The position numbers and the translations under genes were made by a program. Source: Rhizobiales bacterium IMCC20636 (lineage in GTDB: Bacteria; Pseudomonadota; Alphaproteobacteria; Rhizobiales; GCA-2746425). Taken from it: a stretch of DNA of 64,000 nucleotides. The notes under the pieces are model-generated. The model ran no database searches, was not told where the DNA came from, and worked only from the letters and a program-made list of their open reading frames with translations. The DNA is taken from assembly GCA_016865015.1 (NCBI GenBank), contig CP018226.1, forward strand, positions 4,495,001 through 4,559,000. Reading direction: 5' to 3'. Positions 22,512 through 27,127 of this stretch are shown piece after piece (position 1 is the first letter of the stretch; the number at the start of each line of letters is the position of its first letter).

Positions 22512-23072
22512 ATGCCAGAACTTTCCAATGCAAAAATCCTGATCATGTCAACTCATGGTTTTGAGCAGTCAGAGCTGGAAACCCCACTCAACAAGCTGCG
22601 CGAATATGGCGCAACCGTTCATGTCGCCACACCGGATGGCCAGGCGATCCGTGGATGGGACGACAAGGACTGGGGTGATTCCGTGGAAGCGGATCTGAAG
22701 ATCTCGGATGTGATCGTTGATGATTATATTGCACTGGTCCTTCCAGGTGGTCAGATGAACCCTGACATCTTGCGCACTGATGAAACGGCTGTCAGCAAGG
22801 TCCGTGCGTTTGTCACCGGCGACAAGATCGTTGCGGCGATCTGCCATGCCCCATGGCTTTTGATTGAAGCAGGCGTTGTCGAAGGGCGTGAAATGACCAG
22901 CTATCCGTCGATCCGTACAGACCTCAAGAATGCCGGCGCCAATGTCGTGGACAAGGCAGTTGCCATTTCCAATGGCATCATCACAAGCCGCGATCCTGGC
23001 GACCTTGACGCTTTTGTCGACAAGATTGTCGAAGAAGTGCGCGAAGGCGAACACCAACGCGACGCTGCATAA
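22512..23072 (+). CDS. PfpI/DJ-1 family protein (type 1 glutamine amidotransferase-like)
   Basis: A 186-residue cytoplasmic protein. The nucleophile elbow AAICHAPWLLIEAG carries the conserved Cys followed by His, and LVLPGGQMNPD provides the oxyanion part; the catalytic Glu is in the N-terminal part near MSTHGFEQSELETPL. Members are called PfpI, YhbO or general stress protein 18 and act as glyoxalase III, deglycase or stress-protective proteins; the exact activity is disputed for the family. A stress promoter candidate lies upstream and a strong hairpin terminator downstream, so it appears to be a single-gene unit. Confidence 0.93.
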   Translation: MPELSNAKILIMSTHGFEQSELETPLNKLREYGATVHVATPDGQAIRGWDDKDWGDSVEADLKISDVIVDDYIALVLPGGQMNPDILRTDETAVSKVRAFVTGDKIVAAICHAPWLLIEAGVVEGREMTSYPSIRTDLKNAGANVVDKAVAISNGIITSRDPGDLDAFVDKIVEEVREGEHQRDAA

Positions 23073-23333: not shown

Positions 23334-24650
23334 ATGAGCCAATCAAATCAGACCGATACGCTTCTGGATATCCTTTCCAGGACTGAGCGCCTGCCGAAAC
23401 ATTTGCTCGATGCTTACCAAAACCGTTCACTGGAAATCATGCTGCGTCACGCGCATAATAATACCGATTTTTACCGGGACCGGCTCGCTTGCCTGTTTGA
23501 TGAGATGGGAAACGTCAATCTGAATGCCCTGCATGACGTACCGATTCTGACACGGTCCGAAATACAGGCCACGCCCGAACAACTCCATGCAGAAGACGTG
23601 CCGGAAAATTCAGGAACGAAGTGCAATTCATATACATCGGGATCAACCGGAGAGCCGCTGAAAATGCGCTATAGCAGCATAAATGGCGAGATTGCACGCG
23701 CTATCCAGTTGCGGACCTATGGCTGGAATGACATCGATTTCAACGGCACTCTGGCCGCTATTTCCACTCAGGAAACGCTGGCAGAAGCAATCCAATTTGG
23801 CGCGCTTGAATCGAGATGGAACGCCTTGGGCACCGGAGAGCTCTTGTTCCTGAACCTGAAAGGCTCCACGGTGAGCGATCAACTTGAGTGGCTTGCCAGC
23901 CACAAGGCAAAATACCTCAGATCGTTTCCGACCGTGTGCGGTACGCTTCTACAGGAAGCCGACAGACAGGGGATCAGGTTCAATCTTGAAAAAGTCCTGA
24001 CCGTAGGCGAGCTGATTCCCGATCTGATGCGCGAAGCAAAGCCCGACCACTGGCCCGACGTGATTGATTCCTATGCAACCACGGAAACCGGGCCGATCTG
24101 CAGTCAATGCAGCCATGGCACCTATCACATTCATCGGGAGAATGTGTTTCTGGAAATTCTTGATGATGATGGCAGCCCGACAGCCCCCGGAGAGATTGGC
24201 CATGTTGTCGTCACAGCGCTTTATAATTTCGCCATGCCATTCATTCGATACGCTATTGGCGACTTTGCTGTTCCTGGTGATGATCAATGCGCCTGCGGCA
24301 GTTCTCTGCCGACTGTTCAACGGATTGTCGGACGCCAGAGAAACTATTTTCGATTTCCGGGCGGGCGAGATGTGTGGCCCTTCGCGAAATCGCGCAAGAT
24401 GAGAAAATATGTCCCCAACCGTTTTCGGCAGATCGCGCAGGTCTCAGATTATGGGATCGAGTTCCGCTACACACCGGAGGCGGAAGACCAATCTGAAGAT
24501 CCTGCTGGTTTGCAGGCCTATCTGGCCGAATGCCTGGATCCCAATATTCAACTCAAACTCGTCAGAATTCCGATCCCCGTGCGAATACACGGACAAAAAC
24601 ACTTGGAATATATCTGCGAGTTGGCGCAATCCATAACGGCACCCACCTGA
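23334..24650 (+). CDS. PaaK-like (phenylacetate-CoA ligase family) adenylate-forming enzyme
   Basis: A 438-residue member of the ANL superfamily. The ATP-binding P-loop SYTSGSTGEPLKM is near residues 102-114, the second motif YATTETGPICSQC near 249-261, and the GEIGHVVVT and RYAIGDFA elements follow. Cysteines in ICSQCSHG and DQCACGSSLP could bind zinc, as in some PaaK relatives. It should activate a carboxylic acid as acyl-AMP, with or without CoA transfer. No phenylacetate genes are present; the neighbours are a putative outer-membrane protein and the peptide/HExxH locus, so it may be an orphan or take part in that locus. No good ribosome site precedes the ATG. Confidence 0.85.
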   Translation: MSQSNQTDTLLDILSRTERLPKHLLDAYQNRSLEIMLRHAHNNTDFYRDRLACLFDEMGNVNLNALHDVPILTRSEIQATPEQLHAEDVPENSGTKCNSYTSGSTGEPLKMRYSSINGEIARAIQLRTYGWNDIDFNGTLAAISTQETLAEAIQFGALESRWNALGTGELLFLNLKGSTVSDQLEWLASHKAKYLRSFPTVCGTLLQEADRQGIRFNLEKVLTVGELIPDLMREAKPDHWPDVIDSYATTETGPICSQCSHGTYHIHRENVFLEILDDDGSPTAPGEIGHVVVTALYNFAMPFIRYAIGDFAVPGDDQCACGSSLPTVQRIVGRQRNYFRFPGGRDVWPFAKSRKMRKYVPNRFRQIAQVSDYGIEFRYTPEAEDQSEDPAGLQAYLAECLDPNIQLKLVRIPIPVRIHGQKHLEYICELAQSITAPT

Positions 24651-24677
24651 CACCAAAGCAGGCAAACACTAAAGAGA

Positions 24678-25481
24678 TCAGACTTCTGGCGGAGCTACTC
24701 CGGAGGCACTATACTGCAACAGATTAGGCGGCAAGGTGGATTCGATCGGATCGTCCTCACGATGACGAGCTTTCAGGGACTTGTCAGACCCGAGATACAG
24801 TCTGACGCCAGCAAACACGCCATAATCGCCATCTTCGTCGATCATGCCATCTGCGTAGAAGGAAACATTTGATAGACCGGCGAACTCAGGCAAAACCTCA
24901 AATCCGGCAACACCATAACTCTTGTCGAGCTGGTGGCGATACCCGGCATACAGGCGCAAATCATCAATCGGATAAAATGACAGCGTTGACCCGGCCAGAA
25001 GACCATCTGAATCACCAAATTCAGCGCCAACCAAACCGCTGATCGTGACGCTGTCGAAGTAATATTCCGCTTCGATCGCCACATTGCCAATATCTTCGTC
25101 TTCACCCCATTCAACATGGTTGAAGGACCCGTACAGCCCTACCAATCCGAAATCAGGATTGCGCCAGAACAGATGTGCACCAACACCGCCAGACACCTCA
25201 TCACCGTCGCGCAAGGCACCCATTGCATCCAGCTGCACGCCATATCTGTGTGCCAGAGGAGCGGTCACCGAGCCACTCAGAATTGATATGAAATCTTCGT
25301 CCAGCACGCCAAATGCAGTGGCAATTTTTGCGTTGACGGCCGAAACAGCAGGCTTGTCTCCAAAGGCTGACTCTGGTGATGAGACTTCCAGATAAGTCAA
25401 ATCAGCCGCATGCGAAGGACCGAAGCCCGAGGAAAAGATGACGATCAATGCCGTAGACGTCAGTAGTTGGTTGCGTTTCAT
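24678..25481 (-). CDS. Putative outer-membrane beta-barrel-like protein
   Basis: A 267-residue exported protein. The signal peptide MKRNQLLTSTALIVIFSSGF ends near SHA before ADLTY. The middle has alternating polar and aromatic strands (VGAHLFWRNPDFGLVGLYGS, NVAIEAEYYFDSVTISGLVG, DDLRLYAGYRHQL) typical of a small outer-membrane barrel. It ends in a polar tail (residues 238-267) instead of a terminal aromatic residue. I do not recognise a named family. It is divergent from the peptide genes that begin 84 bases away, so it could share regulation with them. Confidence 0.72.
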   Translation of the reverse strand: MKRNQLLTSTALIVIFSSGFGPSHAADLTYLEVSSPESAFGDKPAVSAVNAKIATAFGVLDEDFISILSGSVTAPLAHRYGVQLDAMGALRDGDEVSGGVGAHLFWRNPDFGLVGLYGSFNHVEWGEDEDIGNVAIEAEYYFDSVTISGLVGAEFGDSDGLLAGSTLSFYPIDDLRLYAGYRHQLDKSYGVAGFEVLPEFAGLSNVSFYADGMIDEDGDYGVFAGVRLYLGSDKSLKARHREDDPIESTLPPNLLQYSASGVAPPEV

Positions 25482-25543: not shown

Positions 25544-25564
25544 TGGCGATCAAAGGAGCTTGCT

Positions 25565-25720
25565 ATGGCAAAAATTATTCTTGACGACCATAAATTGTTG
25601 GGCACGACGCCTGATGGATTTCAGGTTGGATCTGAAAAAGTTGGTGATGAAGAGGAAGGGGAGGTGGGGCCTGACCCTGAGAAAGTTTGTCGGTTAACAG
25701 GCAAGTCTAATCAAAAGTAA
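25565..25720 (+). CDS. Small peptide gene 1, candidate RiPP precursor
   Basis: A 51-residue ORF starting ATG with a strong ribosome site AAAGGAG 7 bases upstream. The peptide begins MAKIILDDHKLLGTTPDGF, continues QVGSEKVG, has an acidic stretch (DEEEGE) and ends GPDPEKVCRLTGKSNQK. It is 23/27 identical in its first half to a second peptide encoded 281 bases downstream, while their middle acidic parts vary. Conservation of the reading frame across the duplication, with insertions in multiples of three, shows that it is translated. It lies 396 bases before an HExxH peptide-modification enzyme gene on the same strand, so precursor function is a good inference. It contains one Cys near the end, absent from copy 2. 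Confidence 0.72.
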   Translation: MAKIILDDHKLLGTTPDGFQVGSEKVGDEEEGEVGPDPEKVCRLTGKSNQK

Positions 25721-25845
25721 CGCAGCAACATGGTTACAAATTTGATCGAGCCATTGTGTTGCCATTCGATTTTATTCAGCTTGGTGATGCGTTCGTCTGT
25801 TTCAGTCTGAAAACACATTTGTTCCGATGACCAAAGGGGTCTGTT

Positions 25846-26007
25846 TTGCCGAAAATCATTCTTGACGAACATAAATTGCTGGGCACTACGCCTGATGGAT
25901 TTCATGTTGGATCTGAAAAAGTTGGCACGCAAAATGAAGAGGAAGACGACGGGCCTGACCCAGAAAAAATTGGTTGGCCAACAGGCAAGTCTGATCAGAA
26001 GAAATAG
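25846..26007 (+). CDS. Small peptide gene 2, candidate RiPP precursor (TTG start)
   Basis: A 53-residue ORF homologous to peptide 1. No ATG is present; the start is TTG at 25846, preceded by AAAGGGG at 25833-25839, exactly where peptide 1 has its ATG and ribosome site. It reads PKIILDEHKLLGTTPDGF, then HVGSEKVG, the acidic run NEEEDD and the tail GPDPEKIGWPTGKSDQKK. Differences from copy 1 concentrate in the middle and in the five residues after GPDPEK (VCRLT against IGWPT), which is how a conserved recognition part and a variable product part would look. The HExxH enzyme gene starts 109 bases after its stop. Confidence 0.7.
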   Translation: MPKIILDEHKLLGTTPDGFHVGSEKVGTQNEEEDDGPDPEKIGWPTGKSDQKK

Positions 26008-26116
26008 CACAGCAAGTTTGTTGCGACCTTGAACGAACCATTCTGTTGCCATTCAATTCAATTTCGCTTGGTGATGTGTTGGTCTCTTTTATCCTGAAAA
26101 GGAACCGAATGCATCG

Positions 26117-27127
26117 TTGGCTGACATGACTGTTGAGGTGTTTACGCCCAGCGCAAACTCCAGCAAACAACTGCTTCAGCGAATGGGCAGCGCGCTTGCG
26201 TCGAGTCTCCGCCATATCTTTGAACAGTCCGAAGACTGGTTGCAAATTGACAGGGCTGCAAAACAGGCTCTGCTTCAACGCCTCGGCAATGCCAGCCGGG
26301 AGTGTCCGACACTTTACGCGCTCCACTTTCGACTAATTGATCAGATCAACGCAGACGAGTTGATGGTGGCTCAGGCCACGATCAATAGAATACTGTCTCT
26401 TCCCTGCGCTGCGGCTGGAACCCAAGTCATGTCGCTTGGTGCGGCTGACGCGGCTGCAGAGCTTTCGGTCATCATTCCATTTTTTGCCGAGAGCGAGGAT
26501 GCCCGATTCACATTTGTCAAACCGGATGAAGCCCAGGCAGCTCCGGCAGTGCGGCAAATCGACGATGCCCTGCAATTGTTAAAGAAGGGCGCGCCAGCGT
26601 TTCATGCAGAAATCAGCGAAATCATTCCCTGGATCGTTATCGCAGCCGGTGAGCCGACGGGCATCAACACCAATTCTCGATCTTCATTTGGTGGCGCATC
26701 CGCCATGCGTGCCTTTGGCGCAGTGCTGTTGAACGCTGCCTTGCAAGGCACTGTGTTTGAACGGGCCCTGTCGCTGGTGCATGAATCATCTCACAATTTG
26801 TTGTTTGCACATGCCCCGAAAGACGGTGTTGTGACCAACTCTCCGACGGAACTCTATTCCTCTCCATTGAGACCTGACCCCCGGCCCATGGAAGGAATTC
26901 ATCACGCCACCTTTGTGCTGGCGCGCATGGCGTTGGTTGCAAAATATTTGCTGCAGTCGGGGTTGCTGAGCCAAGTAGAAAATGAATTGGCGCGCAAGAC
27001 CATCACCAATGCTCGCGCCCGGTTCGCCGACGGGCTTCACACGCTAGATGAACATGCAGCTTATACACCGTCCGGCGCACAGTCCATCGCCGAAGCACGC
27101 GCCTTTATGAACTCACTGCAGCAATAG
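26117..27127 (+). CDS. HExxH-motif putative peptide modification enzyme
   Basis: A 336-residue protein. HESSH is at residues 222-226 (VHESSHNLLFA), and YSSPLRPDPRPMEGIHHATF follows, giving a third His at 262 or 263. This combination is the signature of the 'HEXXH motif-containing putative peptide modification protein' family, now thought to be iron/2-oxoglutarate-dependent peptide beta-hydroxylases in RiPP clusters, rather than a protease. The start is TTG at 26117 (LADMTVEV) or ATG at 26126; GGAA at 26101-26104 fits TTG better. Two homologous small peptides lie directly upstream on the same strand. I see no transporter, leader peptidase or other modifying enzyme beside it. Membrane segments and a signal peptide are absent. 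Confidence 0.82.
   Translation: MADMTVEVFTPSANSSKQLLQRMGSALASSLRHIFEQSEDWLQIDRAAKQALLQRLGNASRECPTLYALHFRLIDQINADELMVAQATINRILSLPCAAAGTQVMSLGAADAAAELSVIIPFFAESEDARFTFVKPDEAQAAPAVRQIDDALQLLKKGAPAFHAEISEIIPWIVIAAGEPTGINTNSRSSFGGASAMRAFGAVLLNAALQGTVFERALSLVHESSHNLLFAHAPKDGVVTNSPTELYSSPLRPDPRPMEGIHHATFVLARMALVAKYLLQSGLLSQVENELARKTITNARARFADGLHTLDEHAAYTPSGAQSIAEARAFMNSLQQ

What the first reader, a model, noticed from the sequence alone, without database searches (positions are those of the whole stretch)
25565..27127. Candidate minimal RiPP locus: two tandem peptide genes before an HExxH peptide-modification enzyme
Two homologous peptides (51 and 53 residues) lie directly upstream of a 336-residue protein with HESSH and the tail motif YSSPLRPDPRPMEGIHHA. 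That enzyme family is known from gene clusters of ribosomally made, modified peptides. Here the usual companions (radical SAM enzyme, leader peptidase, ABC exporter) are absent, so the locus is either a minimal two-component system or relies on host enzymes. The conserved front (KIILDEHKLLGTTPDGF) and variable middle and tail suggest recognition and product parts. Asp and His residues in the conserved parts are natural targets if the enzyme is a hydroxylase.
Basis: partly seen in the sequence, partly recalled or inferred. Interest (0 to 1): 0.87.

Follow-up and report, generated by a model that had tools for sequence, protein, structure and literature searches.

The report
Tandem peptides beside a peptide-hydroxylase gene
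A bacterium carries two near-twin small peptide genes next to the gene for an iron enzyme that probably hydroxylates them; related peptide-and-enzyme pairs turn up in other bacteria, which points to a family of modified peptides that seems undescribed and of which this is a stripped-down branch.

Summary
Observation confirmed: two peptide genes (51 and 53 aa) with good ribosome-binding sites precede a 336-aa enzyme. The enzyme is an αKG-HExxH peptide β-hydroxylase by family model (TIGR04267) and fold (only ChlBHExxH and SjiH match significantly). The pairing is real. A congener keeps one peptide plus the enzyme, the genes look to be under purifying selection, and a model built without this genus ranks the two peptides first and second of 837 window ORFs. 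Of 54 enzymes examined (these two included), 30 have the leader motif LDxxKLLG just upstream, against 7 hits in 1.62 million strand-bases elsewhere. Relatives usually have Lys/Gly-repeat cores, and 37 of 54 have an ATP-grasp ligase within 3 kb. The window lacks both, but shares with its congener a four-gene block adding a PaaK-like ligase and a putative outer-membrane protein. I found no model or paper for this precursor family in the libraries searched. Best reading: a reduced branch of an uncharacterised RiPP-like family whose enzyme hydroxylates the peptide beyond its leader. Product and function are unknown; the proposed His targets are not conserved.

The parts
25565..25720 (+). precursor peptide 1 (51 aa): leader KIILDDHKLLG, GSEKVG, acidic C-terminal part
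25846..26007 (+). precursor peptide 2 (53 aa, TTG start), tandem duplicate of peptide 1
25552..25558 (+). ribosome-binding site AAAGGAG of peptide 1
   Evidence: read
25833..25839 (+). ribosome-binding site AAAGGGG of peptide 2
   Evidence: read
26117..27127 (+). alphaKG-HExxH-type peptide beta-hydroxylase (336 aa; ATG at 26126 is an alternative start)
   Evidence: TIGR04267, 88.6 bits, cut-off 40; ChlBHExxH fold
26780..26794 (+). codons of HESSH, metal-binding motif (residues 222-226)
   Evidence: H222, E223, H226 invariant in the 37 sequences aligned, window included
26855..26908 (+). codons of YSSPLRPDPRPMEGIHHA (residues 247-264)
   Evidence: S249-R252, D254, R256-P257, G260, H263-A264 invariant in the 37 sequences aligned; SP-R-D-RP shared with ChlBHExxH
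24678..25481 (-). putative outer-membrane protein (267 aa, no Pfam or NCBIfam family), divergent from peptide 1; second member of the block shared with the congener
   Evidence: 'outer membrane' is my reading of the sequence, not a model match
23334..24650 (+). PaaK-like adenylate-forming ligase (438 aa), first member of the shared block
   Evidence: PF00501 over its cut-off, NCBIfam matches all below cut-off; 75% identical in congener

Best explanation
The two peptides are ribosomal precursors of the αKG-HExxH enzyme. The enzyme binds the conserved N-terminal leader (KIILDxxKLLG) and, using Fe(II), O2 and 2-oxoglutarate, hydroxylates β-carbon(s) in the following segment (conserved TxxDGxxVGSEKVG and the C-terminal tail). 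The locus is a reduced branch of a wider, uncharacterised RiPP-like family made of leader LDxxKLLGF, Lys/Gly-repeat core, αKG-HExxH enzyme and usually an ATP-grasp ligase: here the ATP-grasp gene is absent, the repeats have given way to an acidic tail, and the precursor gene is duplicated. Shown here: enzyme family and fold, recurrent leader-enzyme pairing, a selection signal on the peptides. Inferred: leader binding, hydroxylation, its site, and the loss of the ATP-grasp gene. Not known: maturation, export, product function, and whether the ligase and outer-membrane protein take part.
For: TIGR04267 above cut-off. AlphaFold2 model pLDDT 93.8; the five PDB matches with E <= 0.001 are four chains of ChlBHExxH 8s5f (best E 1.4e-10, TM 0.66) and SjiH 22ob. 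The congener has one homologous peptide directly upstream of a 68% identical enzyme. Leader motif within -700..+300 of 30 of 54 enzymes (window and congener included), against 7 hits in 1.62 million strand-bases elsewhere, two of the 7 being L040 sites counted again. Leave-cluster-out peptide model at E < 0.1: 17 of 25 enzyme clusters upstream; downstream 0 of 25, two far sites 0 of 23 each, antisense 1 and 2 of 25. Genus-out model ranks the two peptides first and second of 837 ORFs. Low dN/dS for the peptide pair, peptide 2 against the congener, and the enzyme. ATP-grasp within 3 kb of 37 of 54 enzymes. Published members β-hydroxylate peptide residues: Asp, His, Phe, Gln, Pro (PMC12636437, sections read; PMC13060819, passages).
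Against: No chemistry is shown. The leader motif was chosen after looking at the upstream ORFs. Genus-out scores are weak in absolute terms (E 0.032 and 0.047 for 837 ORFs), and a 15-residue leader model alone does not separate them from noise (peptide 1 ranks third). The strict motif is in only 9 of 26 enzyme clusters, because two clusters supply many of the loci. L077, one of my seed peptides, is not recovered once its cluster is left out. Of 22 order genomes with TIGR04267, 17 gave no peptide-profile hit. The tree joins the genus to the others by a long branch (2.07), so loss of the ATP-grasp gene is parsimony on a weakly resolved tree. dS for peptide 1 against the congener could not be computed, and dS for the enzyme exceeds 1. 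No leader protease or exporter was recognised nearby.
Confidence: 0.72

Rival explanations
1. A four-gene unit (compatible with the best explanation, but wider): in this genus the PaaK-like adenylate ligase has replaced the ATP-grasp enzyme as the carboxylate-activating partner, so the peptide is both hydroxylated and acylated or conjugated, and the divergent outer-membrane protein exports, receives or is protected from the product.
For: Between the window and the 18-kb congener stretch L031, among ORFs of 60 aa or more, only ligase (75%), OMP (85%) and enzyme (68%) are shared apart from 24-30% matches between general ABC-transporter ATPases far from the block; the peptide, too short for that comparison, is 67% identical. 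Both ATP-grasp and ANL ligases activate carboxylates (established knowledge). The same genome has an apparent fusion of an ATP-grasp domain to a PaaK-like ligase beside another OMP (L120).
Against: Ligase/OMP pairs occur in many other copies in the genus, and the stretches of them that I fetched hold no such peptide, so adjacency may be coincidence carried along together. No ligase or OMP homologue was found in the other HExxH stretches scanned.
Confidence: 0.2
2. The HExxH protein is a metalloprotease that trims the peptides.
For: HExxH is the zincin motif; the relative PflC hydrolyses its substrate when the leader is missing (PMC12636437).
Against: No Pfam match at all, so no peptidase family; fold search finds only αKG-HExxH structures above noise; residues of the SPLRxDxRP segment are shared with ChlBHExxH.
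Confidence: 0.05
3. A decaying remnant: having lost the ATP-grasp partner and the Lys/Gly core, the peptides and enzyme no longer make a product.
For: No RimK-like ATP-grasp in 5 of 5 genus genomes; 3 of 5 lack the enzyme; core composition reversed from basic to acidic.
Against: The enzyme keeps HExxH and the SPLRxDxRP residues with dN/dS about 0.16 against the congener; the peptides show dN/dS about 0.25-0.3 and are duplicated; L042, from another family of the order, has a similar two-tandem-peptide layout in a genome that also lacks the RimK-like ATP-grasp.
Confidence: 0.1

Closest known systems
ChlBHExxH (8s5f), fused radical SAM/αKG-HExxH of Chlorogloeopsis
   Same: HExxH domain family, fold (TM 0.66) and SPxRxDxRP...G..HA residues
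   Different: Here the enzyme stands alone; no radical SAM domain or radical SAM gene among the neighbours scanned
PflC/PosC, Pseudomonas αKG-HExxH enzymes (PMC12636437)
   Same: Stand-alone αKG-HExxH with a precursor gene and no protease gene found in the cluster
   Different: Their precursor has a nitrile-hydratase-like leader, consecutive Gln and ARMD; the cluster has MNIO-nitroreductase, GNAT and transporters, none seen among the neighbours scanned here
PesO of the nitrilobacillin cluster (PMC13060819)
   Same: αKG-HExxH enzyme with two precursor peptides; β-hydroxylation (of Pro)
   Different: Cluster with MNIO, Asn-synthetase-like enzyme, M16 peptidases and transporter; none seen among the neighbours scanned here
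LDxxKLLGF/KxG-repeat precursor + αKG-HExxH + ATP-grasp loci found here (e.g. L050, L057, L076)
   Same: Leader motif, gene order, enzyme family
   Different: Those have basic Lys/Gly-repeat cores and an ATP-grasp ligase; the window has an acidic tail, one or two KxG units and no such ligase

Membership tests
αKG-HExxH peptide β-hydroxylase (TIGR04267) | Score above the curated cut-off | tested here: met
   88.6 bits against 40
αKG-HExxH peptide β-hydroxylase (TIGR04267) | Fold of ChlBHExxH | tested here: met
   Predicted model; Foldseek E 1.4e-10, TM 0.66
αKG-HExxH peptide β-hydroxylase (TIGR04267) | HExxH and SPxRxDxRP residues | tested here: met
   Invariant in 37 sequences aligned, window included; shared with 8s5f
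αKG-HExxH peptide β-hydroxylase (TIGR04267) | Fe(II)/2-oxoglutarate-dependent hydroxylation of a peptide | not testable with these tools
   Needs biochemistry
RiPP | Short precursor gene conserved beside the modifying enzyme | tested here: met
RiPP | Conserved leader, variable core | tested here: met
   Sequence pattern only; leader function not tested
RiPP | Post-translational modification present in the product | not testable with these tools
   Needs mass spectrometry
RiPP | Leader protease or exporter in the cluster (common, not obligatory) | tested here: not met
   None recognised among the neighbours scanned; a DJ-1/PfpI protein at 22512-23072 and two proteins without Pfam match leave a little room
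LDxxKLLGF/KxG-repeat family defined here | Leader motif LDxxKLLG | tested here: met
   the next residue is Thr, not Phe
LDxxKLLGF/KxG-repeat family defined here | Basic GxKxG-repeat core | tested here: not met
   0 GxKxG and net charge -4/-5 against medians 2 and +7 in 30 seed peptides, 2 of which also have 0 GxKxG
LDxxKLLGF/KxG-repeat family defined here | ATP-grasp ligase in the locus (37 of 54) | tested here: not met
   None within 3 kb; RimK-like type not found in the genome
Graspetide | ATP-grasp macrocyclase beside the precursor | tested here: not met
   for the two ATP-grasp kinds modelled here
Zincin metalloprotease | Match to a peptidase family or structure | tested here: not met

The most novel reading that the evidence does not exclude
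This genus carries a four-gene peptide-modification unit in which a PaaK-like adenylate-forming ligase has taken over from the ATP-grasp ligase of the parent family, so that the duplicated precursor is β-hydroxylated and conjugated to a carboxylic acid and handled by a dedicated outer-membrane protein: a new RiPP-like class with interchangeable carboxylate-activating partners.
Probability: 0.15. Interest if true: 0.8.

Novelty: new variant of a known kind. Interest (0 to 1): 0.6.

Why it matters
The transformations made by αKG-HExxH enzymes cannot yet be predicted (stated in PMC13060819, passage). The loci gathered here give a simple, recurrent precursor-enzyme pair with a short leader, in its plainest form two genes, which makes leader recognition and site choice easy to test. 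The wider family, with a Lys/Gly-repeat core and a RimK-like or cyanophycin-synthetase-like ATP-grasp partner, appears undescribed in the sources searched and suggests a new product type (hydroxylated, possibly side-chain- or terminus-ligated Lys-rich peptides; inference).

Tried and rejected
LysR regulator as the common divergent neighbour (a guess noted): rejected. Pfam gave nothing; sequence, profile and predicted fold show a RimK-like ATP-grasp enzyme.

His as hydroxylation target: rejected on conservation. Protease: rejected.

Ligase/OMP arrays elsewhere as further homes of such peptides: a leader-motif scan of 13 fetched stretches (L116-L128; L127 and L128 are the two weak peptide hits, E 0.07 and 2.84) found one ORF, in L124, which I take for chance.

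Reverse association (is the RimK-like ATP-grasp specific to HExxH loci?): not supported. At E <= 1e-10, 4 of 385 class genomes had it. Of eight stretches then fetched around such genes (six from those four genomes, plus G181 and G358), one (L144) held an HExxH enzyme and a peptide. The ATP-grasp family is broader than this system.

Genome-wide peptide profile search: 7 of 397 order genomes. Five hits lie beside a TIGR04267 gene, but four of those five were in the training alignment, so only G234 is independent; two others are marginal (E 0.003 and 0.007). 17 of the 22 TIGR04267-bearing genomes gave no hit.

Promoter and terminator scan: no more sites than in shuffled sequence. Plasmids: 3 distant enzyme matches and 2 partial ATP-grasp matches. 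A notebook line overstated the ATP-grasp result: 8 of the 10 non-genus genomes tested have the gene (10 of the 20 non-genus genomes with TIGR04267 were given), but in G181 it is on another contig and in G358 about 800 kb away.

Rows dropped: L032-L034 (duplicates of L081, L085, L082) before all counts of 54; L035, L039, L044 and L045 had no ORF passing the HExxH + SPLRxDxRP filter. The 54 enzymes lie on 53 stretches (L040 has two). The 44 named loci were found by patterns from the PLR-D-RPM and GIHHATF segments, so more divergent enzymes are under-sampled. Radical SAM-fused members were not fetched in full. The 30 seed peptides were chosen by eye; leave-cluster-out tests guard against that only in part.

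Full report
Observation. Both peptide genes have strong ribosome-binding sites. They are 75% identical to each other, and the repeat extends over the RBS and about 90 bp of downstream spacer, so the pair arose by tandem duplication with a 281-bp step. Differences concentrate in third codon positions (10/4/15 of 51 codons; NG86 dN 0.15, dS 0.52). Peptide 2 against the congener's peptide gives 8/6/17 of 37 (dN 0.24, dS 0.97); for peptide 1 against the congener (11/5/22 of 37) dS could not be computed. These look like translated, selected genes.

Enzyme. It scores 88.6 bits on TIGR04267 (cut-off 40) and matches no Pfam family. An AlphaFold2 model (pLDDT 93.8) finds ChlBHExxH (8s5f, E 1.4e-10, TM 0.66) and SjiH (22ob, E 1e-6); the next match has E 0.28. 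H222, E223, H226, R252, D254, R256 and H263 are invariant in the 37 sequences aligned, and the HExxH and SPxRxDxRP parts align with 8s5f. Published αKG-HExxH enzymes hydroxylate Asp, His, Phe, Gln or Pro in ribosomal peptides, and PflC/PosC also cleave the backbone oxidatively (PMC12636437: abstract, introduction, mining section and discussion read; PMC13060819: abstract and passages). Passages only were seen of PMC7726476, PMC12257519 and PMC12452194. The Nat. Chem. 2024 paper on ChlBHExxH was seen only as a reference and a PDB title.

Relatives. In 397 genomes of the order, 22 match TIGR04267, 20 above cut-off. Of five genus genomes only the window's and G003 have this enzyme. G003 has one homologous peptide (37 aa) directly upstream. 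Forty-four named loci came from genome contigs and 15 stretches from order genomes; after removing three duplicates and four stretches without a passing ORF, 54 enzymes on 53 stretches remained, the window's included. The order is that of Bauldia: G019, of the same order, has contigs whose lengths equal those of Bauldia litoralis records (inference).

A peptide family. Many relatives have a short ORF just upstream that begins with LDxxKLLGF-like residues and ends in Lys/Gly repeats such as KLGAKVGGKVG. The motif [LIV]D..[KR][LM][LFY]G, chosen after seeing these, lies on the same strand within -700..+300 of 30 of 54 enzymes; elsewhere in the same stretches there were 7 hits in 1.62 million strand-bases, two of them L040 sites counted again. 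At 50% identity the 54 enzymes form 26 clusters, of which 9 have the motif; the downstream and antisense controls have 0 of 25 each. With a profile trained without the cluster under test (E < 0.1), 17 of 25 clusters have an upstream hit; downstream 0 of 25, two far sites 0 of 23 each; the antisense controls have 1 and 2 of 25, all in L040, where at least one peptide gene does lie on the other strand. L077, one of the seeds, is not recovered when left out. A genus-out profile ranks the window peptides first and second of 837 ORFs (E 0.032, 0.047; next 3.1) and the congener's peptide first in its stretch (E 9e-4); a 15-residue leader-only model is too short to do so (peptide 1 third). Six representative peptides gave no NCBIfam match, and the window peptides gave none in Pfam or NCBIfam; the representatives were not run against Pfam, and PHROGs and PADLOC were not used.

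Companions. An ATP-grasp enzyme lies within 3 kb of 37 of 54 enzymes, 32 of a RimK-like kind and 5 of a cyanophycin-synthetase-like kind; 11 lack it with more than 2.5 kb of sequence on each side (one of them, L071, has it about 5.5 kb away), and 6 cannot be judged. Four RimK-like examples matched no Pfam family; the profile matches D-Ala-D-Ala ligases weakly, and the predicted fold is closest to RimK, LysX/ArgX and Ddl. This kind is absent from 5 of 5 genus genomes and present in 8 of 10 other enzyme-bearing genomes searched, in two of them far away. In the tree the window and congener enzymes sit on a long branch among loci of which most have an ATP-grasp gene, which suggests loss but does not prove it. 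L042, from another family of the order, has two tandem peptides (LDLSRLVGF...SKVGE) before its enzyme, and its genome also has no RimK-like ATP-grasp, so the reduced form may recur.

The window's branch differs in its tail: 0 GxKxG units and net charge -4 and -5 after the leader, against medians of 2 and +7 in 30 seed peptides, two of which also have 0 GxKxG. One KxG survives in the conserved GSEKVG.

The wider block. Comparing ORFs of 60 aa or more in the window with those of 18 kb of G003, the shared genes are the PaaK-like ligase (75%), the divergent putative outer-membrane protein (85%) and the enzyme (68%), besides 24-30% matches among general ABC-transporter ATPases far from the block; the peptide, too short for that comparison, is 67% identical. 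G003's upstream flank looks to hold transposase genes (my reading of the sequences) and a D5_N protein. Enzyme, ligase and OMP have dN/dS of about 0.16, 0.15 and 0.11, with dS near or above 1. However, ligase/OMP pairs exist in many other copies in the genus, and the stretches of them that I fetched have no such peptide, so their part in this pathway is open.

Mechanism. Most likely the enzyme binds the leader and hydroxylates β-carbon(s) beyond it; residues conserved in the three genus peptides there include D17, S23, E24 and K25. His is unlikely, since His-9 is Gln in G003 and His-20 occurs only in peptide 2. Maturation and export would depend on genes elsewhere, as suggested for PflA. Binding, site and maturation are inference.

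Literature. Nine searches of the held PMC library covered HExxH with RiPP terms, KLLGF, KVGGK-type repeats, TIGR04267/IPR026337, HExxH with ATP-grasp, ChlH, SjiH and αKG-HExxH phrases. Listings showed no description of this precursor family; KLLGF and KVGGKVG hit only four unrelated papers. Subscription papers are mostly not held, so this is not proof of absence.

Verdict. Real and conserved; a new variant of a known kind, embedded in what looks like an undescribed precursor family. Interest 0.6.

Noticed in passing
window 23334-25481; L116-L126: Convergent pairs of a PaaK-like ligase and a putative outer-membrane protein occur in many, often tandem, copies in the genus; L120 7787-11029 has an ATP-grasp-type Pfam match over its cut-off and also matches the window's PaaK-like ligase, an apparent fusion of the two.
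   Followed up: partly
L040 17268-17567: One 99-aa ORF holds two leader-core units in a row (IDYARLLGFD...AGAKVGK, IDYSKLVGFD...AGAKVSK), on the strand opposite the HExxH gene.
   Followed up: partly
L144 5626-8936: An HExxH enzyme with a peptide lies between two RimK-like ATP-grasp genes.
   Followed up: no
L054, L064, L068, L073, L078: Here the ATP-grasp beside the HExxH enzyme is cyanophycin-synthetase-like, not RimK-like (L078 by similarity only).
   Followed up: partly
L085 8998-9312: In Bauldia litoralis an acyl carrier protein gene (PF00550) follows the HExxH enzyme, with what reads like a glycosyltransferase gene next.
   Followed up: no
L031 17-2126: Two transposase-like genes stand near the congener's block; identity is my reading of the sequence, no model was run on them.
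   Followed up: no
window 22512-23072: A DJ-1/PfpI-family gene lies upstream of the block; the family includes some proteases (recalled). It is not among the genes shared with the congener's stretch.
   Followed up: no
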